NCBI GenBank assembly: GCA_964006375.1
Contig: OZ023269.1
Span: 6,016,501-6,080,500, forward strand
Reading direction: 5' to 3'
Source of the DNA: Tillus elongatus
Taxonomy: Eukaryota > Arthropoda > Insecta > Coleoptera > Cleridae
DNA: 64,000 nt
Shown: piece after piece, positions 4,062 to 60,542 of the stretch
How positions within the stretch are numbered: the stretch's first letter is position 1
Layout: each line of letters opens with the position of its first letter
Position numbers and translations under genes: made by a program
Notes under the pieces: generated by a model
Databases searched by the model: none
Told to the model about the DNA's origin: nothing
The model's input: the letters and a program-made list of their open reading frames with translations, nothing else

Positions 4062-4385
<324 letters not shown>

Positions 4386-10315: not shown

Positions 10316-10486
10316 GATCAGCAGTCCTAACTTACTGACTTGTGGGATAGCCGTCTGTTGCAAGTTAAAAACTCTTTATTAAATTGTCGAGTTTTCAGAA
10401 TGATTTATTTCATTATCAAGGATACAACATGGAAAGCAAAAAATTTTACAATTTCCATAGAATTACTACAAGAGTTTTAAATACTT

Positions 10487-10857
10487 ACATGCAAGCTAAC
10501 AGAACCTCGGTGGTTCAGGGGTAAGAACCGAAGTACTGGGTTCGATCCTAGGTTACTCCTTTCACTTTTTCAGTACAAACTGTAACATTAACATCAACCG
10601 AGGTTCTGGCATGGTATTTAAGCAAGTTGAATGTCTGCACGTTCCGCCCTTCGGAGAGGGCGTAAAGCCGTCGGTCCCGTGTCCATGCGATGTTGGGCAC
10701 GTTAAAGATCCCTACCCTTCTTACAGAATGGCAGGGGTTTGGCAAAATTTCCGGGATAGTGAGGTAAAACTGTTCCCTGGCGTCGGTGATTGGCCATAGT
10801 CGCGGAAATAGGCCGACGTTAAAGAAACAAAACACACACACACACATGCAAGCTTAC
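10487..10857 (+). mobile_element. tRNA-headed SINE with target duplication
   Basis: The body is 10501-10843. A pol III box A (TGGTTCAGGGG, 10511-10521) and box B (GGTTCGATCC, 10539-10548) mark a tRNA-derived head. A GC-richer central part includes GGGCACGTTAAAGATCCC, which resembles the conserved middle domains of invertebrate SINEs. The tail is (CA)n. Flanking 14-mers at 10487-10500 and 10844-10857 match at 13 of 14 positions, which indicates TPRT integration by a partner LINE. It sits in the 3' flank of the minus-strand PLE that follows. Calling the central domain a named class would need a library search. Confidence 0.8.
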
Positions 10858-11250
10858 TAATTTGTTTTTGTTTTATCTTTAGCAAGAAATTGTAAATAGG
10901 GATAGTATTTTTTTAATTCTTATCTTCCTTTAAGTTTGTAAAATTTTTGTTAAAAGTTATTTCGAAGTCTGCTAAATACATTATTTTATTATTTAAGGTC
11001 CAATGTAAAATAGAAACATAACTAAAATTTATATTATGGCCGGTATCAAGATTATGTTCAGACAAAGCACAAGTTATTTTTTGTGTTGTTTAAATCTATA
11101 TTTAAGGGATCTGCTTGTTTAGCCAATGTATTTTGAATTACATTTACTACATGGAATCCAATATACCACCCCAGATACTTTAAAAATTTCATCCTTACTT
11201 TTAAGTTCACTGAAAATATTATTAATTGTATTAAGTATCCAAACGTTATT
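10858..11250 (-). pseudogene. Penelope-like element, C-terminal part (first half of a split copy)
   Basis: On the minus strand this continues the PLE at 12648-13013 after removal of the HINE. It reads VSGVVYWIPC and KYIG (GIY-YIG region, with a stop after KYIG), then CALSEHNLDTGHN, then the family's end (compare LADFEITFNKNF here with LEEFEITFNDNL at 60.2 kb). The catalytic RT part is not present and stops interrupt it. The SINE at 10501-10843 lies in its trailing region. Confidence 0.75.
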
Positions 11251-12647
<1,397 letters not shown>

Positions 12648-13013
12648 TTTTTTTTTTAAATTGGTTTCATTTCTAAATATAAACTGTAATCTAGTGGTAA
12701 TATTTTTAATGTAACGAATCGATATGTAAAAAATGTTTCCGAACTTGAAATTATATGGGTGTTGTGTCAGATAAATTTGATATTGTTTGTAGTGTCTTGT
12801 ATTGTAATGGTAATTGTTTGAAGACTTGTATAATAGTTTATTAGGTAATTTAGGAGGATACGAGTTGTTTACAAAAATTTTAAACCTAGGTTTAAAAAAT
12901 ATAATATTGAAATATGCCATCGCTCTCTCCCTGAAAAAAAAAACATTATAATATTTTTGTACATTATCTACAATATAAACAGATAATCTTTGCAACATAT
13001 AACACGGTGACAA
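12648..13013 (-). pseudogene. Penelope-like element, second half of a split copy
   Basis: It encodes FVNNSYPPKLPNKLLYKSS, YNTRHYK and FYISIRYIKN, matching FVNNSYPPKLLNKLLY, YNTRQY and FYISIPYIKS of the plus-strand PLE at 59.7-59.9 kb. This is the linker between RT and GIY-YIG domains. It continues across the inserted HINE into 10858-11250. The 5' part of the element is missing. Confidence 0.75.
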
Positions 13014-16042: not shown

Positions 16043-17503
16043 AACTGAATTTCTCTTTTACCTTTTTGTTACTTTTTTCGTCTTTGGTGCAATTTTTAAG
16101 TTATCTCATGCATTTCTAATATTTTTTAGCGACTTTCTGTTGAAAAAAATGACTAATGAAAGATAAGAACTTTGAAGACTTTTAATTCAAGTTAAATAGC
16201 AGCTGTTGTTGTCCTTAGTTGGTAAAACCATTCCACAGTTAACATAGACGTAGAGATTTGTGACATCAGAAGAGGTTGTTTTCTTCTCTTCAACCGGATT
16301 CAATTTTTACAGCCTCCACAGGCAAAATAATTTTCTCTGTGAAACCACAGAATAAGTATCTAGTTCTGTATTTAGATCAGATTTTGAGTGTTTTTTAATT
16401 TATTTAATTTATTTCTATTAGCTAATTTTCTTGTACAGAATGTTCTTTTAATAGCGATTTTTTTATAAATGAGTTTAATAAAATTTTCTTTGAAGAAACG
16501 AATTTTTGTGTGAACAATTATTCAATTAATGGCACATTTTTTAAACGAAATCTGTCGAAAATAAGGTTTTAATGGATTTTCGTGCGAACAGATCATTCTA
16601 TTTTCAATTTTAATTACAGATTGGGTATATAATTTTAATTTTATGTATGCTACTAACAAAATTTTGTATAAAAAAAATTTAGCCAGTTTTCTCATAAATT
16701 TTTTGTGCTTCCGTAGAAATCATTTTTTGTAAGATATTTTTGTGAAGTTTTGGTAATTAATGATAAATGGTCAATAAGTCAGTATAAAAAAATGTTTACG
16801 GATTTTCTTGAAACAATTGCTTGCAAATTTTCACGACATTTTTGTTGTCTCGTCGAAAAAGTTTTTGGGAAAGTTATATTTTGGTAGGCGGGTAAATAAC
16901 TTGAAATCTTTCGTTGGTCAGGAAAATCGGACCAGTTTTTTTTTATTTGTTTCATTAATTTTTATTAGCGAATTTTCTTGCACAAAATGGGGTTTTAATA
17001 ACGAATTTTCTTATAAATAAACTTAAGGAATTTTCTTTGAAGAAATATTTGTTGAGAGTAGAACATTTTTTAAAGGAAAATCGTCGAAAAAAATATCTTA
17101 ATGGCTTTTCATGCAAACAAATTATTTTATTTTCAATTTTAATTACAGATTAGATATGTAATTTCAAGTTTATGTGTTGTTTTAGCAAAATTTTGTATAA
17201 AAAATATTTAGCCAGTTTTCGCAGAAATTTTTTTGTGCTTCCGCAGAAATCATTTTTTATAAGATCTTTTTGTGAAATTTTTGTAATTAATAATAAATGT
17301 TTAGTAAGCTATAAGTGAGTGGTGAACGTGTCGCCACCTAGTTCGGAACCAAGTACTATGTTGTCACGCCCGCTCCAAATAACACAGAGTGTTAAAAATA
17401 GAGACAGTATACAACTAACTAACAATTTAAAAAATTGTTAGGCCTGGCCCATTTCTACCCCAATATAGGGACAAAGTATGTAAGACTAGATGCATTTTCG
17501 CGA

Positions 17504-17564
17504 CAATTAGAACCGTAGACCGGTTTCGCTCTCATTAGAGCTCTTCAGTACGGCATACTAATTG
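17504..17564 (-). ncRNA. Hammerhead ribozyme, intact core (retrozyme A, minus arm)
   Basis: On the minus strand, outer stem I is CAATTAG/CTAATTG, inner stem I CCGTA/TACGG, core CTGAAGA, stem II GCTCT/AGAGC with loop AATG, then GAAAC, a self-complementary ACCGGT stem III, and the cleavage-site C at complement of 17518. All conserved core positions are present. The loop-less palindromic stem III suggests it works best as a dimer. Confidence 0.92.
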
Positions 17565-17726
17565 TAGCAAAAATGCACCAAAAATAACACGGCTATCGTA
17601 TAGCCAGTCTCAAAACACTAAGTGAGTGGTGAACGTGTCGCCACCTAGTTCCGAACGTTCACCACTCACTTAGTGTTTTGAGACAGGCTATACGATAGCC
17701 GTGTTATTTTTGGTGCATTTTTGCTA

Positions 17727-17787
17727 CAATTAGTATGCCGTATTGAAGAGCTCTAATGAGAGCGAAACCGGTCTACGGTTCTAATTG
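17727..17787 (+). ncRNA. Hammerhead ribozyme with C3 mutated (retrozyme A, plus arm)
   Basis: Same fold as the minus-arm copy, but the core reads TTGAAGA at 17743-17749: the invariant C3 is T. C3 pairs with G8 in the active site, so this copy should be inactive. Stems II and III and both halves of stem I are kept, apart from the change. Confidence 0.9.
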
Positions 17788-18493
17788 TTGCGAAAATGCA
17801 TCTAGTCTTAGTAAGCTATTATAAAAAAAAGTTTTTGTATTTTCTTCGAAAAATTATTTGCGAATTTTCTTGAATTTTTTTTTATTTGGTCGAAAATGTT
17901 TTTGTGAATAATTATATGGTAGGCGGGTAAATAACTTGAAGACGTTAGTTAAGCCAGAAAAATCGGATCATTTTTGAAAAAAAAAAATTCACTTTTTTAA
18001 ACAATAAATGAAATACGGTACATTGTTTCTACTATATTAGTAACCAAATTTGATGGCTCCTTTCATTAAACAGACACATTTGATATTAAAAACTTTTTTT
18101 ATCGAACACACCTTATATATTATTAGATTTTTGCATTTTCCATCGAAATATAATGCATGTTTGTAAGAAAAGAAACTCAGGACGCATCAAGTGCGTTATG
18201 GTAGCGAATTTTTATTATATGTTTCAAATTTCAATAGCTCAATTTGCTGTTAGGTTAAGGTTTGTTGGCTAGTAACCAGTTTTATCGAGAACATTTTGAG
18301 TTTATTTTCGAAAAATCTTTTAGACTTTTAAACAGTAAAGTTATTGTGATGAAATATGGTACATTATTTATACTATATAGATTATACTGGCCACCAAATT
18401 TCATGCCTGCTTTCGTTAAAAGAAAAGACATATTTGCTATTAAAAACATTTTTATGAAAATTCACTACCATAACTCACTTGCTGCATCCAGAC

Positions 18494-20236: not shown

Positions 20237-21239
<1,003 letters not shown>

Positions 21240-24404: not shown

Positions 24405-24908
24405 TTTTTCCTGTAAAATAGTCACAAAAATGTATACGTAGTATGTAAACCTTATTTAAATAAGAAACTTACCTAATAAGAAAACCTTAGTAGTTAAGCC
24501 AAACAACATTGTAATAGGATTCGAGTTTAAGGCTTTGTCGTGTAAACATCGTTCATCTCGGATCGTAGTTTTCGCGATATTACGAGTTATTTAAGCTCAT
24601 TTCTTGGCAGTTTTTTTTAGTGCAAATTAATTCCATAGTGCCAGATAGTGACTATAGTAAATAATCTTATATTAAAAGTGCACTCTTGAACAATTAAGTG
24701 ACAGATTACAAATTAACGGTAATATAAATCAAGTAAATATTTGCATATTTTTATCACTACACGGAGATAGTATTATCGCAAATATATTCTCATACATAAA
24801 CTCCGTTCTTAAAAATAATAATTGGCAACCAGTTATACACTGATGGAGTGCGACTTGTGGCCTGCATATTAAGGCTACAAAATAAGCATACAAAACGAGG
24901 CTGCCTCT

Positions 24909-26291
24909 ATGTATAGGAGCAGCCAAACACCCAACAATGAAGAAATAGTTAACCAACCTACTGTATCCACAAATATAATGACCACTAGATCAGAAAACCC
25001 AAACGCTTCAACACTCAGATCCTATGCTCAGGCTATTGCATCACGTCCAGTTCAAGTAATACCCAAGAAAGAACAAGCTATTATCATTAATGCAGTTGAC
25101 GGCCCAAAACTTATTGAGTATGTAAAAGCAGTCAGCAAAATTACTAGTGCGAGAAATATTTTATTTGCTTCTAGAATGTCACACAATCGTGTGTGCATCT
25201 ATTTATCCACAACCACCTTAGTCGATTTAGTAATAAACGAGCATGGCACGATAAAAATAGGTGAACATGATACTAGTGTCAGACGTTTAGTTACACCAGC
25301 TAAACGAATTATAATTTCAAACGCAAGCCCATATATACCGCCCGAAATCATTGCTGACGCACTTAGAGAGTGTGGGTTAAATTTAGTTAGCCAGCCATCT
25401 TTCTTGAGAGCGGGAATGGTCGGGGACGAGTTCGCGCACATCTTAAGCTTTAGAAGACAGGTTTATATAACACCGCTTCCAGCAGATCAAACCTTACCAT
25501 CGACATTATGCATTGTTTTTGAGGGCATAGAGCACAGAATTTTTATAAATTCGGACGATATGGCCTGCTTTCTATGTAAACAGACAGACCATATTGCTGC
25601 TAATTGTAAAAACAGCGAGAAATTAAACACAAATCTGCCAACTCGTTTAGAAAACGACGGTATAGAAACTCGCGGTGCAAATGACAAAGCTATTCTTGAA
25701 AGCATATCACCTCCACTAGAAAACACAATCAGTTCCCAAGATCTTATGAGCGATGCTGATGCTCAAGAGGCACAACCTCTTGCATGTCCGGAAAATCAAA
25801 TACAATCTGTTAAAAGACCAGCACCATCTAGTAGCACTGGTTCACTTATTGATCTTGCAGCATCTGTTGACTATCAGCCAGCAACTAAAGTAGTTGATAC
25901 CGAATTTGTGATACCTAAGCAACCGGAAACTCAACCAAAGAAGAAAAAGAAGAAATCTAACATCGATCTGGACACTGCACTAAGCAACGTTAGAGAGATA
26001 ATCGCATCCAACCAACCACAATACATTTTAAACTTTGCTCAGCTGAAAAGTTTCCTGGAAAATACCTTCGGTTCTTGTGATCCCATAGAAGAGGCCCTTA
26101 GATTTGTAAGCAGATCTAATATACCTGCGCTACTACAAATGATGTACGAAATTTACCCAAACATAACAAACAAGGCGATCAAGAATCGAATATCTAGATT
26201 AAACACAAAGTTTCGTAAGCACCTTGAGCAAAACGCCGAAACAGAGAGTATCTCATCTATGGAAGTAGACGACTCTGACTCAAATAATTAA
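24909..26291 (+). CDS. Retrotransposon ORF1 (gag-like RNA-binding protein)
   Basis: A 460-residue protein expected to coat the element's RNA and help target-primed reverse transcription. One CCHC zinc knuckle, CFLCKQTDHIAANC (C-x2-C-x4-H-x4-C), lies at residues ~220-233. Residues ~50-200 look like an RRM-type fold region (KRIIISNASPYIPPEIIADA), by inference. A basic stretch with KKKKKK is at ~345. The C-terminal ~80 residues are helical-looking. Many insect gag proteins of this kind have three knuckles, and this has one. The first ATG gives MYRSSQTPNNEE; a second ATG at residue 24 (MTTRSENPN) is also plausible. The stop TAA overlaps the start of the ORF2 frame. Confidence 0.9.
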   Translation: MYRSSQTPNNEEIVNQPTVSTNIMTTRSENPNASTLRSYAQAIASRPVQVIPKKEQAIIINAVDGPKLIEYVKAVSKITSARNILFASRMSHNRVCIYLSTTTLVDLVINEHGTIKIGEHDTSVRRLVTPAKRIIISNASPYIPPEIIADALRECGLNLVSQPSFLRAGMVGDEFAHILSFRRQVYITPLPADQTLPSTLCIVFEGIEHRIFINSDDMACFLCKQTDHIAANCKNSEKLNTNLPTRLENDGIETRGANDKAILESISPPLENTISSQDLMSDADAQEAQPLACPENQIQSVKRPAPSSSTGSLIDLAASVDYQPATKVVDTEFVIPKQPETQPKKKKKKSNIDLDTALSNVREIIASNQPQYILNFAQLKSFLENTFGSCDPIEEALRFVSRSNIPALLQMMYEIYPNITNKAIKNRISRLNTKFRKHLEQNAETESISSMEVDDSDSNN

Positions 26292-29200
26292 TTTTACAGA
26301 ATTCATAGATCAAATTAATATACTTCAATGGAACTGCTCTGGGTACTTTAAACGTCTTCCATTCTTACAAACACTGATTGCATACTCAAAACCACATATC
26401 ATTTGCCTACAAGAGACCAATCTAAAAGACGAACAGTCAGTGAATTTGAAAAACTACAATTCCTTTCTATTTAATCGAAAATCGTCTCTTAGAGCCAGTG
26501 GAGGAACTGCTATATTTACCTCCACAGAGATTATGGTTAAAAGCATAGCATTGAACACCCACCTCGAAGCAGTTGCAGTAGAGGTATTGACTCCCACGAA
26601 GTTCTCTATATGCAGTATATATTGTCCAGATAGCCAACCACTAAATGAGCGTGACATTTATGAGCTTATAAAACAACTACCTTCTCCGTTTTACCTTTTA
26701 GGCGATTTTAACTCTAGAAGCAGTGCGTGGGGCAACATCAAAACGGATCAAAGAGGTAGAGAAATTGAGAAACTCCTACAATCCTCAAATCTAATACTTC
26801 TAAACACAGGCGAACCTACACATTTTTGTGCAAGATCTGGAAGTTTAACTTGCATTGACCTCAGTTTTTGCAGTCCTAGCTTGTCAATGTCCACAGAATG
26901 GAAACCCCACGATGACCTATATGACAGTGACCACTTTCCTATTTGCATTAAAAAGTCTGTTGCTGGTACCCAACCAACATTCCTCATCAGTAAATGGAAT
27001 ATTTTTTCAGCAAACTGGGTATGTTACAGAGAAGAAATAATTGAAAAGATGGAAGAATTCAACATCGATACGAATGCAGAGGCGTGTTTAAACAATTTCA
27101 ACAACATAATCATTAGATCAGCAACCAATCACATAGGAAAGCGTACTACTAACAGCAGACGACCGCAAGTACCTTGGTGGAACAACAGTTGCAAAATTGC
27201 AGCCCAAGAAGCAAAACGAGCACTCAATAAGTTTAGAAAACACAGAACGCAACACCATTTTCTGGACTTGAAGAGACTTAAGGCATTGGCTCGGAAAATA
27301 ATTAGAGAAAGCAAACAAAAATCATGGGAAGAATATGTGGGAACTCTATCTATAAACACCCCTTCCTCTGCAGTATGGAACAAAATTAATAGGATTAAAG
27401 GAAAGCAAAATTTTCACCATATACCGGGTTTATATGATAGTCAAGACAACCTGGTCACTTCAAACGTCGATATGGCAAATCTAATGGCAAAAAGTTTTTA
27501 CGACATCTCTGCCAATGAAAACTACTCTTCAGATTTTCTCAAAATAAAACAGGAAACTGAATCAAACATTCGTATAGATCCTGGTGATGATAACGCAGCT
27601 CCAATCAATTCACCCATTAGAATGGAAGAGCTTAGTGGAGTACTCGCCAACGCAAATAGCTCGGCAGCAGGTCCAGACGATATTCCTATGGTATTTTTAA
27701 AAGAATTACCTTTAATTGCGTTAAGTAAACTACTTGATATTTACAACCTGATTTGGGCGAGTCATCAATTTCCCTCCATCTGGCAAGAAGCTGATGTGCT
27801 ACCGCTTCACAAAATAGGCAAGCCAAAAGATAGAACCTCTGGATATAGATCAATATCTCTCACATGCACTTCCTGCAAGGTTTTGGAAAAAATAATTAAT
27901 AACAGATTAATTTGGACTCTCGAGAGCAAAAGTATGTTAAGCCAACATCAAAATGGATTTAGACCAAACAGGTCTACCATGGATAGCTTGATAACACTAA
28001 ACTTCGAAATAACAGAAGCATTTGCATGCAAACAAGAAGTACTTGCAGTATTCTTAGATATAAACAGAGCGTTCGATACAACGTGGAGACACAAGGTTGT
28101 TCGTGATCTACACGATAATTATATAAAGGGAAACATTCTTCACTTTATACAACACTTCCTAGAAAATAGGCGATTTAGAGTCAAATTGAACGGAGCCATC
28201 TCATCCCAGTATGAACTAGAGAATGGAGTTCCTCAAGGTTCTGTATTGAGTACCACTCTTTTCCTAATAGCCATAAACAGTGTCACTAAATACATAGCAC
28301 AACCAGTTAAGATATCCCTTTTTGCCGACGACATAGTACTTTTTTGTAGAGGAAATAATGCAGATTCAACCAGAATACTACTACAAGATTCCATACTCTC
28401 AATTCAGAAATGCTCAGAAGAACTTGGTTTTACCTTTTCCGTAGAGAAATCAGAAGTGATGCTCTTCTCTCAAAGAAGGCACGTCAGCACCATCACTCCA
28501 CTACAACTATACAACAGTGATTTAGCCATGAAAGATGAACATAGATTCCTTGGGATGATATTAGATACCAAAGTAACATGGAAATCTCATATTAATTATA
28601 TTAAAATGGAATGTCTTAAGAAAATTAATATCCTAAAAGTACTGGCAAATCAAAATTGGGGAGCTAGCGAAACTGTGCTCCTTACAATATACCGATGCCT
28701 TATTAGATCAAGACTTGACTATGGTTCTATTTTATATTCATCAGCTAGTAAGTCAACTCTTAAGCAACTAAATGTTATCCAAAATACAGCATTAAGATTA
28801 GCAACAGGAGCTTTTAGGACCAGTCCTACTTTAAGTATACTCAGGGAAACTGGAGAGATACCTTTGTGGCTAAGGAGGAAACATTTATCGCTGTCATATG
28901 CTGCGAAGATTACATCGGATACATGCAACCCTGCACACTCGATTGTTATGAACAGGGTATTTCAAAACTATTCACGCCTTGCTAACATATATTTAGATAT
29001 ACACAATAATTTAAGCTCAAGAGATATCCACTACGTCAGAAAGAATGTTGTCCAAGATCCTCCATGGTTGGAAAACCACCTCATTATCAACACAACCTTG
29101 AGTATTTACAACAAACGAACAACACCTGCCCCCTCTCTAAGAGCAGATTTCTATGGGATTCTCAGCCAGTACCCATATGATGCAATATATTACACTGATG

Positions 29201-29988
29201 CATCTAGATGCGGCTTCACCACTGGTTGCTCCGTTTTCGGAGCGGATATAAAACTGAGTCTACGACTCTCGGATGTTTGCAGTGTGTATACAGCAGAGCT
29301 CACAGCCGTACACTTGTGTCTAGAAACTTTCCTTAAATCTTCCCATACCAGATCGATTATTTGCTGCGACTCATTATCAGCTGTCAATGCCATAGGAACA
29401 CTTTACAACAAACATCCTATTGTTGCAGACATACATAAAACGGCAAGGGAAATATCCCAGTGTGGAAAATCGACAGTAATAATATGGGTGCCATCTCACT
29501 CTGGTATAGGAGGCAACATTCAGGCAGACAACTTAGCTAGGAAGGCTTGTGAAAAAATTAATCCAGATCATGAGTTTATTATACATACAGACCTTCAAAC
29601 TCACTTAAAACACACTGTTCACGAGGAATGGCAACATTTATGGTTTAGTGCTCAAACTAAACTCAGAAACATAGAATCCACCACTCAGATAACAAAAATA
29701 ACAAACCTAAACAGACGAGAACTTATCATTATCAGAAGGTTAAGGATTGGTCATACTATGCTTACACACAAACACCTACTAGAAAAAAGTGAACCTCCTT
29801 TATGCAGCCATTGTAGTACTCAACTCACAGTAAACCACATTTTGACTGAGTGCCCGGGATATAGTGAACAACGGTCGTATCTGGATCTTAAGGAAAACAT
29901 CAGTGATATCCTCAGTTTCTCCGGAACCAATGATCTATCGAGACTAATTTATTTCTTGAAAACTACTAATGTTTACAACACATTGTAA
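26269..29988 (+). CDS. Retrotransposon ORF2: endonuclease, reverse transcriptase, RNase H
   Basis: Multifunctional enzyme that nicks the target and copies element RNA. The frame is open from 26269 (1239 codons). The APE-type endonuclease starts QINILQWNC, has ICLQETN, GDFN (26701) and SDH (26926). RT shows NGFRPNRST, LDINRAFDTTW, GVPQGSVLS and catalytic FADD at 28321-28332. RNase H has D (29197), E (29296), D (29368) and D (29527), the full catalytic set. A C-terminal knuckle CSHC-x7-H-x4-C starts at 29803. There is no in-frame ATG before the endonuclease core. The first GTG, at 26440, would remove QWN and QET, so start at 26269-26291 by coupling or +1 shift from ORF1 is inferred. Confidence 0.93.
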   Translation, partial: TTLTQIINFTEFIDQINILQWNCSGYFKRLPFLQTLIAYSKPHIICLQETNLKDEQSVNLKNYNSFLFNRKSSLRASGGTAIFTSTEIMVKSIALNTHLEAVAVEVLTPTKFSICSIYCPDSQPLNERDIYELIKQLPSPFYLLGDFNSRSSAWGNIKTDQRGREIEKLLQSSNLILLNTGEPTHFCARSGSLTCIDLSFCSPSLSMSTEWKPHDDLYDSDHFPICIKKSVAGTQPTFLISKWNIFSANWVCYREEIIEKMEEFNIDTNAEACLNNFNNIIIRSATNHIGKRTTNSRRPQVPWWNNSCKIAAQEAKRALNKFRKHRTQHHFLDLKRLKALARKIIRESKQKSWEEYVGTLSINTPSSAVWNKINRIKGKQNFHHIPGLYDSQDNLVTSNVDMANLMAKSFYDISANENYSSDFLKIKQETESNIRIDPGDDNAAPINSPIRMEELSGVLANANSSAAGPDDIPMVFLKELPLIALSKLLDIYNLIWASHQFPSIWQEADVLPLHKIGKPKDRTSGYRSISLTCTSCKVLEKIINNRLIWTLESKSMLSQHQNGFRPNRSTMDSLITLNFEITEAFACKQEVLAVFLDINRAFDTTWRHKVVRDLHDNYIKGNILHFIQHFLENRRFRVKLNGAISSQYELENGVPQGSVLSTTLFLIAINSVTKYIAQPVKISLFADDIVLFCRGNNADSTRILLQDSILSIQKCSEELGFTFSVEKSEVMLFSQRRHVSTITPLQLYNSDLAMKDEHRFLGMILDTKVTWKSHINYIKMECLKKINILKVLANQNWGASETVLLTIYRCLIRSRLDYGSILYSSASKSTLKQLNVIQNTALRLATGAFRTSPTLSILRETGEIPLWLRRKHLSLSYAAKITSDTCNPAHSIVMNRVFQNYSRLANIYLDIHNNLSSRDIHYVRKNVVQDPPWLENHLIINTTLSIYNKRTTPAPSLRADFYGILSQYPYDAIYYTDASRCGFTTGCSVFGADIKLSLRLSDVCSVYTAELTAVHLCLETFLKSSHTRSIICCDSLSAVNAIGTLYNKHPIVADIHKTAREISQCGKSTVIIWVPSHSGIGGNIQADNLARKACEKINPDHEFIIHTDLQTHLKHTVHEEWQHLWFSAQTKLRNIESTTQITKITNLNRRELIIIRRLRIGHTMLTHKHLLEKSEPPLCSHCSTQLTVNHILTECPGYSEQRSYLDLKENISDILSFSGTNDLSRLIYFLKTTNVYNTL

Positions 29989-39739: not shown

Positions 39740-40302
39740 GCTCTAACCAGTGGCGTCTCCTGACCAAAAAGTTCGGGTGTGCGCTAACGAGTTGTGGTTA
39801 GTGGTGACGGCGAGAAATACAACTTTTTTTGCATCCAAAATGTCAATTTTAAATGACACTGAAAAAAAATCTTTAGCAAACATAGATGTGAAAATGTATT
39901 TTGTCAATCAAACAAACAGTGACAAAACGACAAACTACAGAGGACAGTGATTCTAGAATACTGTGGTCTGTGCAAGCGCAGTCGTAATGCTCGTAAATAA
40001 TGCTGTCGCAGCGTTGGTTAGACCGGCGTTCCTTTCATTTGTCTTGAGCGATATTTTTACAGCTCCCAGCAACCATGAAATCAATGGTATTTTCCTCACT
40101 ATTTTAAGCACGTGGGTGTGGGACTGCATTGTATATCAATACAGCTCCATCGACTGAAGTTGTTCGGAAATATTAACGCACACCTAACCCGAATTAATTC
40201 CCCGTTGCTATTGACCTACTCATATTCTCTGAATATGTTAGAAGACGCGGTACCTACTTCATTCCAAGTCACTATTAAGTAAGGCTAGATGCATTCTCGC
40301 AA

Positions 40303-40363
40303 CAATTAGAACCGTAGACCGGTTTCGCTCTCATTAGAGCTCTTCAGTACGGCATTATAATTG
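40303..40363 (-). ncRNA. Hammerhead ribozyme, intact (retrozyme B, minus arm)
   Basis: Core CTGAAGA, stem II GCTCT/AGAGC with AATG loop, GAAAC, palindromic ACCGGT stem III, inner stem I CCGTA/TACGG, outer stem I CAATTA/TAATTG. Predicted cleavage is between complements of 40317 and 40316. Confidence 0.93.
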
Positions 40364-40809
40364 CAACAAAAATACACCTATAAAGTAATACCGCTATAGT
40401 AGCCAACCTTTCAACACTAAGTGAGTGGTGGACGTGCCGCCACCTAGTTGCGAAACCAAGTAGTATGTTGTCACGCCAGCTCCAAATAACACAAAGTGTT
40501 AAAAAAATAGAGACTGTATACAACTAACTAACAATTTAGTAAATTGTTAACAATTTAGTAAATTGTTAGCCCTGGTCCATTTCTACCCTAATATAGGGAC
40601 AAAGTATGTAAGGCTAGATGCATTCTCGCAACAACTAAGTTGTTAGTTAGTTGTATACAGTCTCTATTTTTTAACACTTTGTGTTATTTGGAGCTGGCGT
40701 GACGACATACTACTTGGTTCCGCAACTAGGTGGCGGCACGTCCACCACTTACTTAGTGTTGAAAGGTTGGCTACTATAGCCGCATTACTTTATAGGTGTA
40801 TTTTTGCTG

Positions 40810-40870
40810 CAATTAGTATGCCGTACTGAAGAGCTCTAATGAGAGCGAAACCGGTCTACGGTTCTAATTG
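40810..40870 (+). ncRNA. Hammerhead ribozyme, intact (retrozyme B, plus arm)
   Basis: CTGAAGA at 40826-40832, stem II 40833-40837/40842-40846, GAAAC 40847-40851, stem III ACC/GGT 40850-40855, cleavage after C40856. Stem I is 40821-40825 with 40857-40861, plus outer CAATTAG/CTAATTG. Every conserved core base is present. Confidence 0.95.
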
Positions 40871-41299
40871 TTGCGAGAATGCATCTAGCCTTACATACTT
40901 TGTCCCTATATTAGGGTAGAAATGGGCCAGGGCTAACAATTTACTAAAATTCTTACTTGGTTGTATACAGTCTCTATTTTTTAACACTTTGTGTTGTTTG
41001 GAGCTGACGTGACAACATACTACTTGGTTCCGCAACTAGGTGGCGGCACGTCCACCACTCACTAAGTCACTATTAACCGATTATTCATTAAATCAAATAA
41101 GTAAATTAAATCGATTTTCACAAAATATGTAGTATATTAAGACTAAGGGAAAAACAAATAAAACATATTTAACTGTGCACATTTTGATTATATTTTCGGA
41201 TGTGCGGCGCACACCTAGCTCACTAGGAGAAACCGCCACTGGCTCTAACATGCACAATTGCCTACCAGAGAAACTAATGTTTTTCTGACAGACCTTTTT

Positions 41300-41940: not shown

Positions 41941-43636
<1,696 letters not shown>

Positions 43637-51049: not shown

Positions 51050-54000
51050 CTGGACGCAGCAAGTGCGTTATGGTAGTGAATTTTCATAAAAATGTTTTAG
51101 TAGCAAATATGTCTCTTCTTTTAACGAAAGCAGGCATGAAATTTGGTTACCAGTATAACCTATATAATAGTAGAAACAATGTACCATATTTCATCAAAAT
51201 AACTTTATTGTTTAAAAATGTAACAATTTTTGGAAAATAAACTTAAAATGTTCCCGAAAAAACTGGTTCCTAGCCAACAAACGTTAACCTAACAGCAAAT
51301 TGAGCTATTGAAATTTGAAACATATAAAAAAAATGCGCTACCATAACGCACTTGCCGTGTCCTGAGCTTCTTTTCTTAGAAACATGCAATACTTCCATGG
51401 AAAATGCAAAAATGCAATAATATAAGGTGTGTTCCACTAAAAACAGTTTTTAATAACAAATGTCTCTCTTTAATGAAAGCAGCCATCAAATTTGGTTACC
51501 AATATAGTATAAACAGTGTACCATATTTCATCAAAATAACTTTATTTGTTTGAAAAAGTGCAAAATCTTTCCGAAAATGAACTTAAAACGTTTTCGAAAA
51601 AACTGGTCCGATTTTTCTGGCTAACTAACCTCTTCAAGTTATTAACCCACCTACCTAAATATAATTGTTCACAAAAACATTTTCGACGAAACTTTAAAAA
51701 ATTTGATGAAAATTCGCAAATAATTTTTTGAAGAAAATCCGAAAACTTCGTTTTTATAATAGCAACGTTTATCAATAATTACCAAAAGTTCTCAAAAAAA
51801 AAAAATCTTACAAAAAATGATTTCTGCGGAAGTACAAAAAGATTTCTGGAAAAACTGGCTAAATATTTTTTACACATAATTTTGCTAAAAGAACACATAA
51901 AATTGAAATTACATACCTAATCTGTAATTAAAATTGAAAATAAAATAATTTGTTTGCACGAAAATCCATTAAAACATCATCTTTGACGAATTTCGTTTAA
52001 AAAATTTTCCATCGATTGAATAATTTTTCATACAAAAATTCAAAGAAAATTCATTAAATTCATTTATAAGAAAACTCACTATTGAAAGAACATTTTGTAC
52101 AAGAAAATTAGCTTATAGAAATAAATTACCAACATTTAACAGAAAACTTCCTACAAAAAAATGGTTTCTACGAAGCACAAAAAAATTTCTGCGAAAACTG
52201 GCTAAATATCTTTTACACAAAATTGTGCTAAAAGAATACATAAAATTGAAATTATATACCTAATCTGTTATTAAAATTGAAAATAAAATAATTTGTTTGC
52301 ACGAAAAGCCATTAAAACATTATTTTCGATGATTCTCCTTTAAAAAATGTTCCACTCGCAACAGATGTTGCGAAAATCCCTTAAGTTTATTTATTAGAAA
52401 ATTCGCCATTACAACAACATGTTGTACAAGAAAATTCGCTAATAAAAATGAATTAAACAAAAAAACTGGTTCGATTTTCCTGGCCAACGAACCATTTCAA
52501 GTTATTTACCCACCTACCAAAATATAATTTTTTCCAAAAACTTTTTCGACAAGACAACAAAAATCTCATGAAAATTTGCGAGCAATTGTTTCAAGAAAAT
52601 CTGTTAATATTTTTTTATAATAACTTATTAAACATCAATTACCAAAATTTCACAAAAATAGCTTACAAAAATGATTTCTACGAAAGCACAAGAAATTTCT
52701 GCGAAAACTAGCTAAATATTTGTTATAAAAAATTTTGCTAAAAGCATACATAAAAAGTAAATTATATACCCAATACGTAATTAAAATTGAAAATAAAATA
52801 ATTTGTTTGCACGAAAATCCATTAAAACCTTATTTTCGACAAATTTCGTTTAAAAAATGTTCCATCAATTAAATAATTTTTCACACAAAAATCCTCAACA
52901 AATGCTTCTTCAAAGAAAAATCATTAAATTCATTTATAAGAAAATTAGCTAATAGAAATAAATTAAATAATTCTCAAAATATAATCTAAATACAGAACTA
53001 GATACTTATTCTGTGGCTTCACAGAGAACATTATTTTGCCTCTCGATGCTGTAAAAATTGAATCCGGTTGTAGAGAAGAATACAAACCTCTTCTGATGTC
53101 ACAAATCTCTACGTCTATGTTAACTGTCGAACGGTTTTACCAACTAAGGAGAACAGCATTAAACTTGAATTAAACGTCTTCAAAGTGCTTATCTTTCATT
53201 AGTCTTTTTTTTTCAACAAGAAGTCGCTAAAAATATTGAAAATACATCAGATAACTTTAAAATTGCATCAAAGACGAAAAAAAGGTAAAAGAAACCTAAA
53301 AGAGAAATGCAGTCTACGGCGAGATTTCAACCATCGTTCCTTTGCTCATCAGCAATGCTTTCCACTATTGAACCACCCTAACACTTGAAAAATATTGTAC
53401 AATAAAAGGTAGAGTGGTCTCCAGTTATCTATTTGTAATACCTGATGTGTTTAGAGGCATATTTTGCAACTATTTTATGAAATAAAAAGAGAAGCACAAT
53501 CTAGAACCTTTTAATATACATTTTATGTAATATTTATGATTAGTAAGTACAATAAAAGCCTGGACGCAGCAAGTGCGTTATGGTAGTGAATTTTCATAGA
53601 AATGATCTGGCACAAAATATTTTATTATTACTTTTTTTTCTTGTAACATAGAAATCTAAATTTTGGTGTATAGTTTACTTTTTATATCGTAAACCTACCT
53701 ACCAAATTTGGTTATCACAGATATTATATTTTTTAAGATAAAAAAAATTTTCAAATGAAAACTCAAAATTTTCCCGGAAAACCTCGTCCGATTTTCTTGA
53801 CTAACAAACATATCAAAGCCATTTACAAAAGGAAGGTATGTGCCAAATTTTATTAAAATCGGCTTATTACTTTTTGAGATATGAATTTTTTTCAAATGAA
53901 AACTCAAAATTTTTCCGGAAAACCTCGTCCTATTTTCTTGACTAACAAACATATCAAAGCCATTTACAAAAGGAAGGTATGTGCCAAATTTTATTAAAAT

Positions 54001-54177
54001 CGGCTTATTACTTTTTGAGATATGAATTTTTTTCGAATGGAAACTCAAAATTTTCCCGGAAAACCTCGTCCGATTTTCCTGACTAACGAACTTATCCAAG
54101 CTATTAACAAAAGAAAGGTACGTGCCAAATTTTATCAAAATCGGCCCATTATTTTTTGAGTTATCGGTGTGATACAT

Positions 54178-58870: not shown

Positions 58871-58877
58871 AAATTAT

Positions 58878-59060
58878 TACATGGAATACAATATTATACC
58901 ACTCCAGACACTTTGGAAATTTCATCCTTGCTTTTGAGTTTACTGAAAATGTTATTAATTGTTTTTGAATATCGAAACGTTATTTTAAAATTGGTTTCAT
59001 CTTTAAATATAAACTTTAACCTATTGGAAATACTTTTAATGTATGGGATTGATATGTAAT
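58878..59060 (-). pseudogene. Inverted partial copy of the adjacent PLE
   Basis: Reverse complement of ~59855-60045 of the plus-strand PLE (shared ACATATCAATCCCATACATT and AAAATAACGTTTCGATATTC). It keeps the undisturbed GTTATTTTAAAATTGG that serves as empty site for the HINE at 11251. Confidence 0.85.
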
Positions 59061-59070
59061 TGTTAGTCTT

Positions 59071-60353
59071 GATATTGTTTCAGTTTTTACTAACATAGCA
59101 CTTCAACTCTTTAAAGATAGCATTGAGAAAAGATGGGTTTCTATTTCTCTAGAAACATCCATTCCAAAAAATACATTTTTTGAAATAGTTGATTTTATTT
59201 TTAACTCAAGCTATTTTGTTTTAGAAAACACATATTATAAACAAATTTTTGGAACTCCAATGGGTGCTTGTATCTCTCCAATTATTGCACAATATGTTAT
59301 AGATGATTTGCTTGAAACATGTATACCAAAATTATATTTCAATATTCCTTTTTTTTTAAATATGTTGATAACATTATTTATAGTATTCCTCTAAATTCAA
59401 CAACACACATTTTAGAGGTTTTTAATTCTTACAACCAATTTATTAAATTTACATTAGAAGAGGAAACAGATAACAGTTTGCCATTCCTAGATACAAAATT
59501 AATTAGAACAAACGATAACAACATAATTTTAGATTGGTATATAAAACCAACTAATTCTCAAAGATATATTAATTTTCATTTAAATCATTTATTTAAAACT
59601 AAAAATAACATTTTATTAAGTTTAAAAAATAGAATATTAAAGATATGCCATCCTTCTTTCAACGAAAAAAATTTAAGAAAACTTTTTAATATTTTTGTTA
59701 ACAACTCTTATCCTCCCAAACTACTTAATAAACTTTTATACAATTGTTTAAACAATCACCATTACAATACAAGACAATATCTACAAACAGTATCAAATTT
59801 ATGTGATAGACATAACACCCATATAATTTCGAGTTCGGAAATATCTAACTTTTTTTACATATCAATCCCATACATTAAAAGTATTTCCAATAGGTTAAAG
59901 TTTTTATTTAAAGATAAAACCAATTTTAAAATAACGTTTCGATATTCAAAAAAATTAACAACATTTTCAGTAAACTCAAAAGTAAGGATGAAATTTCTGT
60001 CTGGAGTGGTATATTGTATTCCATGTAATAATTATAGTTTAAGATACATTGGCCAAACAAGCAGAGTCCTTAAAAATAGGTTAACACAGCACAAAAGTGA
60101 CATACGTTTACAAAAAAGAACTTGCGCTCTGTCAGAACATAATCTCGACACTGACCATAATATAAATTTTAGTAATGTTTCTATTTTACACTGTGAAACC
60201 TTAAGTAATAAAAGAATGTGTTTAGAAGAATTTGAAATTACTTTTAACGACAATTTAATAAACTTAAAGAAAGATAATAATTTTAGAAATCATTACCCCT
60301 ATTTATATTTCCTAGACAAAAACAAAAAACAAATTCAATTAGATAATAGTTAG
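59071..60353 (+). pseudogene. Penelope-like element: RT plus GIY-YIG endonuclease, disabled
   Basis: Starts in RT at DIVSVFTNIA (motif A Asp), then YKQIFGTPMGACISPIIAQ, then a frameshift in the T9 run near 59347, then KYVDN, where active PLE RTs have YVDD: the second catalytic Asp is Asn. Downstream DWYIKPTNSQRYINFHLNH, FVNNSYPPKLLNKLLY, then GIY-YIG domain VVYCIPC-x5-LRYIGQTSRVLKNRLTQH and HNLDTDH. The 344-codon open stretch 59319-60353 is the intact C-terminal two-thirds. The N-terminus and terminal repeats are missing. No hammerhead found beside this copy. Confidence 0.9.
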
Positions 60354-60542
60354 CTTTATATGTCAGTTTGGCACTTTTCGACTTCACTCAAATTCATAAA
60401 AAGGTTTTCTTTTCATGTTTGTTATTCCATAATTAGTTTGGTAGAACTCACGTTATATGTAAGTATTTTAAACTTTTATATTTTCTCAAGTAAATTCTAC
60501 ATTTTTTTGATAAATAACACTATTACGGTCACAAAAATTTAA

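What the first reader, a model, noticed from the sequence alone, without database searches (positions are those of the whole stretch)
40266..41076. A retrozyme: hammerhead-bearing ~310-bp monomers in a head-to-head multimer with 13-bp target duplication
Two full type I hammerheads on opposite strands, each with CTGAAGA, a perfect GCTCT/AGAGC stem II, GAAAC and a palindromic ACCGGT stem III, lie in repeated ~310-bp units. That is the structure of animal retrozymes, small non-autonomous retroelements that make circular RNAs. The units are normally tandem; here they are inverted, so transcription from either side would give a self-cleaving RNA.
Basis: partly seen in the sequence, partly recalled or inferred. 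Interest (0 to 1): 0.92.

Follow-up and report, generated by a model that had tools for sequence, protein, structure and literature searches.

The report
Head-to-head hammerhead retrozyme insertions
Two small elements in this DNA, which is likely from an animal, each carry mirror-image copies of a predicted self-cutting RNA motif between duplicated target sites, and their shared end points suggest that a Penelope-type retrotransposon enzyme likely inserted them by copying ribozyme RNA from both sides of a DNA cut.

Summary
E1 (40279-41063) is 785 bp between exact 13-bp duplications. It has two head-to-head arms of a ~310-bp unit, each with one type I hammerhead motif (Rfam HH9, E 2-4e-5, below gathering score). 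An uninterrupted paralogue of its target lies at 42002-42168.

A second element not in the finding, E2 (17313-17807), has the same architecture, a 9-12-bp duplication and four uninterrupted paralogues.

Both elements stop at the same two points of the unit (within 1-4 and 1-2 positions), but their inner joints differ. Arms resemble their own partner (3 and 6 differences in 148) more than the other element (16-19 in 145-149). All four arms cross the predicted cut site.

Best reading: retrozyme RNA, circular or uncut, was likely reverse-transcribed from both target strands by a Penelope-like (PLE) enzyme. A purified PLE extends both strands in vitro (in print), and a head-to-head PLE remnant lies in this window. 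The helper is inferred.

Each strand has one hammerhead, always transcribed after its own complement, with a one-pair helix III. Genome-wide copies and circular RNA could not be tested.

The parts
40266..40278 (.). left target-site duplication of E1, AAGTCACTATTAA
   Evidence: exact match to 41064-41076
40279..40637 (-). E1 minus arm; outer end S1 at 40279, 5' end at the centre
   Evidence: the inner boundary is approximate
40295..40365 (-). type I hammerhead motif of the minus arm; predicted cut between 40317 and 40316
   Evidence: Rfam HH9, E 2.4e-5; intact core
40630..40644 (.). E1 centre joint, AACAACT-A-AGTTGTT
   Evidence: 7-bp arms with a 1-nt spacer; arms of 7 or more in 1.3% of simulated joints
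40637..41063 (+). E1 plus arm, 1.4 units long; outer end S2 at 41063
40808..40878 (+). type I hammerhead motif of the plus arm; predicted cut after 40856
   Evidence: Rfam HH9, E 3.6e-5; intact core; cut position
41064..41076 (.). right target-site duplication of E1
42002..42168 (+). uninterrupted paralogue of the E1 target
   Evidence: 90.5% over 168 columns through the joint
17301..17312 (.). left target-site duplication of E2, TTAGTAAGCTAT (TTA may belong to the element end on the other side)
17313..17655 (-). E2 minus arm with an intact hammerhead core at 17518-17548; outer end S2
17655..17807 (+). E2 plus arm; hammerhead core at 17743-17773 with C3 changed to T; outer end S1
17808..17819 (.). 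right target-site duplication of E2
58872..60509 (+). 5'-truncated Penelope-like remnant with a head-to-head inverted arm (58872-59059)
   Evidence: GIY-YIG E 1.8e-5; weak RVT_1 E 0.0021, below cut-off; inverted arm 93% over 188 columns

Best explanation
E1 and its sister E2 are head-to-head insertions of a hammerhead-bearing unit of about 310 bp between target-site duplications, and they were likely made by a Penelope-like (PLE) reverse transcriptase that primed on both cut target strands and copied retrozyme RNA, probably circular or uncut, from two preferred internal start sites. Shown: the motifs, the arms, the duplications, uninterrupted paralogues of both targets, the same two outer end points in both elements, different inner joints, and arms that cross the predicted cut site. 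Inferred: (1) tandem source loci elsewhere give RNA that self-cleaves, probably as dimers because helix III is weak, and that is ligated into circles; (2) a PLE protein nicks both target strands 9-13 bp apart; (3) each 3' end primes cDNA at S1 or S2 of the RNA; (4) the two antisense cDNAs meet and are joined at short inverted microhomology, which puts the 5' ends at the centre. The resulting locus is predicted to be a poor or dead source, with one hammerhead per strand that is always preceded by its own complement.
For: Exact duplications and uninterrupted paralogues for both elements. Same outer ends: S1 differs by 1-4 positions, S2 by 1-2; two random ends agree this closely with probability 9e-4. 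Of 22 variable columns in the shared stretch, 13 group arms by element, 0 by position and 9 are private to one arm. 4 of 4 arms cross the predicted cut site; 3 of 4 are longer than one unit. PMC11167929 (parts 1-2 of 4 read): purified anole PLE protein cuts and extends both target strands and starts at two internal RNA sites not homologous to the target. PMC3846280 (passages and Discussion read): rotifer Penelope copies are most often head-to-head, with 8-10-bp duplications, a tail on one of the inverted repeats and palindromes at the joint. A PLE remnant in this window is itself head-to-head with overlapping arms. The E1 and E2 ends show no A-run or simple-repeat tail.
Against: S1 and S2 are about 170 nt apart, not 30-40 nt as in PLE tails; closeness in the fold holds for 1 of 3 units only. 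S1 and S2 share no tested homology with a PLE start site; no full-length PLE is in the window. The PLE remnant's inverted arm ends inside its ORF and no duplication of 8 bp or more was found for it, so it does not show fixed ends. Only two copies were seen. The E1 minus arm has a 19-bp doubling that the plus arm lacks, against a strictly identical template. Joint palindromes are weak in E2 (4 bp; 8.7% of simulated joints).
Confidence: 0.58

Rival explanations
1. LINE twin priming: a LINE enzyme began target-primed synthesis on retrozyme RNA, and the other target strand primed internally on the RNA, giving the inversion.
For: A LINE with RT, endonuclease and RNase H domains lies at 24873-29988; twin priming also gives head-to-head arms and such duplications (recalled).
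Against: No A-run or repeat tail at the four outer ends, whereas this LINE has a 14-base A-run 130 bp after its stop. Both outer ends are fixed, while the second priming point in twin priming is expected to vary (recalled). Arms overlap each other by more than a unit in E1, unlike the split of one linear RNA.
Confidence: 0.22
2. A head-to-head master element is transcribed and moved as a whole; E1 and E2 are its copies, and E2 lost its centre by deletion.
For: Same outer ends in the same relative order; one central deletion would turn an E1-like layout into E2 (reasoned).
Against: Arms group by element (13 columns) and never by position (0 columns). Arm-to-arm gene conversion could hide the signal.
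Confidence: 0.12
3. An ordinary tandem retrozyme insertion was later rearranged by inversion.
For: Animal retrozymes are usually tandem (PMC7229834).
Against: Two of two elements show the same order with intact duplications and the same outer ends; separate inversions would have to agree.
Confidence: 0.05
4. Assembly or fold-back read artefact.
For: Fold-back reads give mirror-image sequence (recalled).
Against: Flanks are not mirrored, arms are offset and differ by 6 and 3 of 148 columns, duplications are exact, and two loci agree.
Confidence: 0.03

Closest known systems
Metazoan non-LTR retrozymes (Cervera and de la Pena 2020, PMC7229834; parts 1-4 of 6 read)
   Same: Type I hammerhead in a non-coding unit of ~310 bp, low GC, duplications longer than 4 bp.
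   Different: Printed ones are tandem arrays with several hammerheads per strand; these are head-to-head with one per strand.
Axolotl and newt hammerhead repeats (same paper)
   Same: Helix III of one pair with a palindromic tetraloop; those act mainly as dimers.
   Different: Those are tandem repeats; here dispersed head-to-head insertions. Dimer activity here is predicted only.
Penelope-like elements (PMC11167929 parts 1-2 of 4; PMC3846280 passages and Discussion)
   Same: Head-to-head copies, duplications of similar length, internal start sites, hammerheads in the repeats.
   Different: E1 and E2 have no RT or endonuclease ORF, and their start sites are about 170 nt apart.

Membership tests
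Metazoan retrozyme | Type I hammerhead with conserved core | tested here: met
   HH9 at E 2.4e-5 and 3.6e-5, below gathering score; intact core in 3 of 4 arms
Metazoan retrozyme | Non-coding unit of roughly 150-450 bp with low GC | tested here: met
   Units of 310, 329 and 307 bp, GC 0.38-0.42; no stop-to-stop frame of 130 aa or more in E1 or E2
Metazoan retrozyme | Direct tandem units with two or more hammerheads on one strand | tested here: not met
   At most 1 intact hammerhead per strand; only a 121-nt direct repeat spaced 310 bp inside the E1 plus arm. Hence called retrozyme-derived, not a standard retrozyme locus.
Metazoan retrozyme | Target-site duplication longer than 4 bp | tested here: met
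   13 bp for E1, 9-12 bp for E2, with uninterrupted paralogues
Metazoan retrozyme | Expressed as linear and circular RNA of unit length | not testable with these tools
   No RNA data
Penelope-like element | ORF with telomerase-like RT and GIY-YIG endonuclease | tested here: not met
   No frame of 130 aa or more in E1 or E2; so not PLEs themselves
Insertion made by a PLE-type enzyme | Head-to-head arms between short duplications | tested here: met
   E1 and E2, 2 of 2
Insertion made by a PLE-type enzyme | Outer ends at fixed internal RNA start sites | tested here: met
   S1 and S2 shared by 2 of 2 elements, chance 9e-4; n is small
Insertion made by a PLE-type enzyme | The two start sites lie 30-40 nt apart (the tail) | tested here: not met
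   About 170 nt apart; closeness in the fold in 1 of 3 units. This lowers 'is a PLE footprint', not 'works like one'.

The most novel reading that the evidence does not exclude
Animal retrozymes are hitch-hikers of Penelope-like elements: a PLE dimer takes hammerhead-made RNA circles and copies them from both cut target ends at two fixed start sites, so such insertions are mirror-image, non-releasing dead copies whose fixed ends are a readable footprint of the helper.
Probability: 0.45. Interest if true: 0.78.

Novelty: new variant of a known kind. Interest (0 to 1): 0.6.

Why it matters
Which enzyme moves animal retrozymes is open: PMC7229834 names PLEs as a strong candidate only. Mirror-image insertions with two fixed ends are a footprint that a genome-wide count could test, and the sequences at S1 and S2 define an RNA template for a PLE insertion assay. 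Head-to-head copies could also give hairpin RNA and so feed small-RNA silencing (inference).

Tried and rejected
S1 and S2 close in space: this looked good in minimum-energy circular folds, but in ensembles the share of equally spaced pairs that are as close or closer is 2% (E2 - arm), 18% (E1 - arm) and 31% (E1 + arm); not used. Snap-back of one cDNA: in E1 neither arm can be wholly copied from the other, because start points and outer ends differ (reasoned). Joint palindromes: 7-bp arms in E1 (1.3% of simulated joints), 4-bp in E2 (8.7%); suggestive only. Duplication around the PLE remnant: only one 7-bp candidate, taken as chance. A third copy in the window: none; all 16 nhmmer rows up to E 10 fall in E1 or E2. 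Relatives in IMG/VR: exact-core pattern 0 hits; looser pattern 6 contigs, with no inverted repeat of 40 nt or more in the parts scanned around the matches and no hammerhead at gathering score. Host: not named; 451 LINE relatives, 120 listed, the few named ones include Nymphon, Coccinella, Anthophora and Gryllus, best identity 44%. Print: no paper in the held library has both 'retrozyme' and 'head-to-head' (0); other listings; most subscription papers are not held, nor are two papers on PLE hammerheads that I asked for, so absence from print is not shown. PMC7761336 and PMC8490949 were seen as passages only.

Full report
What is there. E1 lies at 40279-41063 between exact copies of AAGTCACTATTAA. 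It has a minus-strand arm (40279 to about 40637) and a plus-strand arm (about 40637 to 41063) in head-to-head order, 96% complementary over 231 nt. Each arm holds one type I hammerhead motif. Rfam gives HH9 at E 2.4e-5 and 3.6e-5 when 1.7 kb is searched, 30.9 and 30.4 bits against a gathering score of 52, and nothing at gathering threshold over the whole window.

It is a true insertion. Joining the flanks across one copy of the 13-mer gives a sequence that matches 42002-42168 through the joint (90.5% over 168 columns). That nearby repeat copy is an uninterrupted target.

There is a second element. The 21-mer beside the hammerhead occurs five times in the window: three in E1 and two at 17481 and 17790. 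E2 (17313-17807) has a minus arm of 343 bp and a plus arm of 153 bp, and duplications TTAGTAAGCTAT (12 bp, of which TTA may belong to the element end). Four paralogues run through its site at 79-83% identity; one of them has a 6-nt gap inside the duplication and another a 7-nt gap a little upstream. A profile of three units finds no third copy in the window. E2's plus-strand hammerhead has C3 changed to T and is predicted dead.

Same ends, different joints. In both elements one arm ends at S1 (CATCTAGYCTTA, 34-38 nt after the predicted cut) and the other at S2 (CCACTCACT, about 205 nt after it). The differences are 1-4 and 1-2 alignment columns; two random ends would agree this well with probability 9e-4. 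The inner joints differ. Of 22 variable columns in the stretch shared by all four arms, 13 group the arms by element, 0 by position and 9 are private to one arm. So the two arms of one insertion were most likely copied from the same or nearly identical RNA, in separate events for E1 and E2. Arm-to-arm gene conversion is a caveat.

The template was not cut. 4 of 4 arms cross the predicted cleavage site and 3 of 4 are longer than one unit. This fits a ligated circle or an uncleaved multimer; the data do not choose between them.

Mechanism. Purified anole PLE protein cuts and extends both target strands and starts reverse transcription at two internal RNA sites not homologous to the target (PMC11167929, parts 1-2 of 4). 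Rotifer Penelope copies are most often head-to-head, with 8-10-bp duplications, a tail on one of the inverted repeats and palindromes at the joint (PMC3846280, passages and Discussion). E1 and E2 fit that pattern, except that S1 and S2 are about 170 nt apart and not 30-40. A PLE-like remnant in this window is itself head-to-head with overlapping arms (GIY-YIG E 1.8e-5; a weak RT match, E 0.0021 and below Pfam's cut-off; inverted arm 93% over 188 columns). Its inverted arm ends within the ORF and no convincing duplication was found, so it does not show fixed ends. LINE twin priming is the main rival; the lack of any tail at the four outer ends and the two fixed ends speak against it.

Function of the locus. 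Helix III is one A-U pair with a CCGG loop. The one-motif catalytic fold is worth -10.7 kcal/mol against -27.1 for the minimum; a two-strand form with a six-pair helix III and one core formed in trans reaches -32.0, but the two-strand minimum is -58.2 and is not that form. These energies ignore tertiary contacts. PMC7229834 reports that axolotl hammerheads with this kind of helix III act much better as dimers. With at most one intact hammerhead per strand, E1 cannot release a unit-length RNA, and in both directions the antisense arm is transcribed before the sense arm, so the motif would tend to be trapped in a hairpin (inference).

Limits. Two copies, one window, no host name, no RNA data, no whole-genome search (nine unanswered requests). 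The helper is inferred.

Noticed in passing
58872-60509 and, on the - strand, pieces in 10437-12960: Two Penelope-like remnants; the first is 5'-truncated with a head-to-head inverted arm, the second is in pieces.
   Followed up: partly
24873-29988: Two long open frames of a LINE: 472 aa and 1239 aa with endonuclease, RT and RNase H domains, followed by a 14-base A-run.
   Followed up: partly
window-wide, e.g. 4183-4383, 20507-21070, 53748-54164: Many (TA)n arrays, several beside a repeat with a period of about 141 bp.
   Followed up: no
40529-40568: A palindromic 19-bp unit is doubled in the E1 minus arm only, which explains its 329-bp unit.
   Followed up: partly
L006:2050-2423: An IMG/VR contig holds two hammerhead-like stretches 315 bp apart whose stems II and III differ by paired changes, read by eye; no Rfam match at gathering score.
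   Followed up: no
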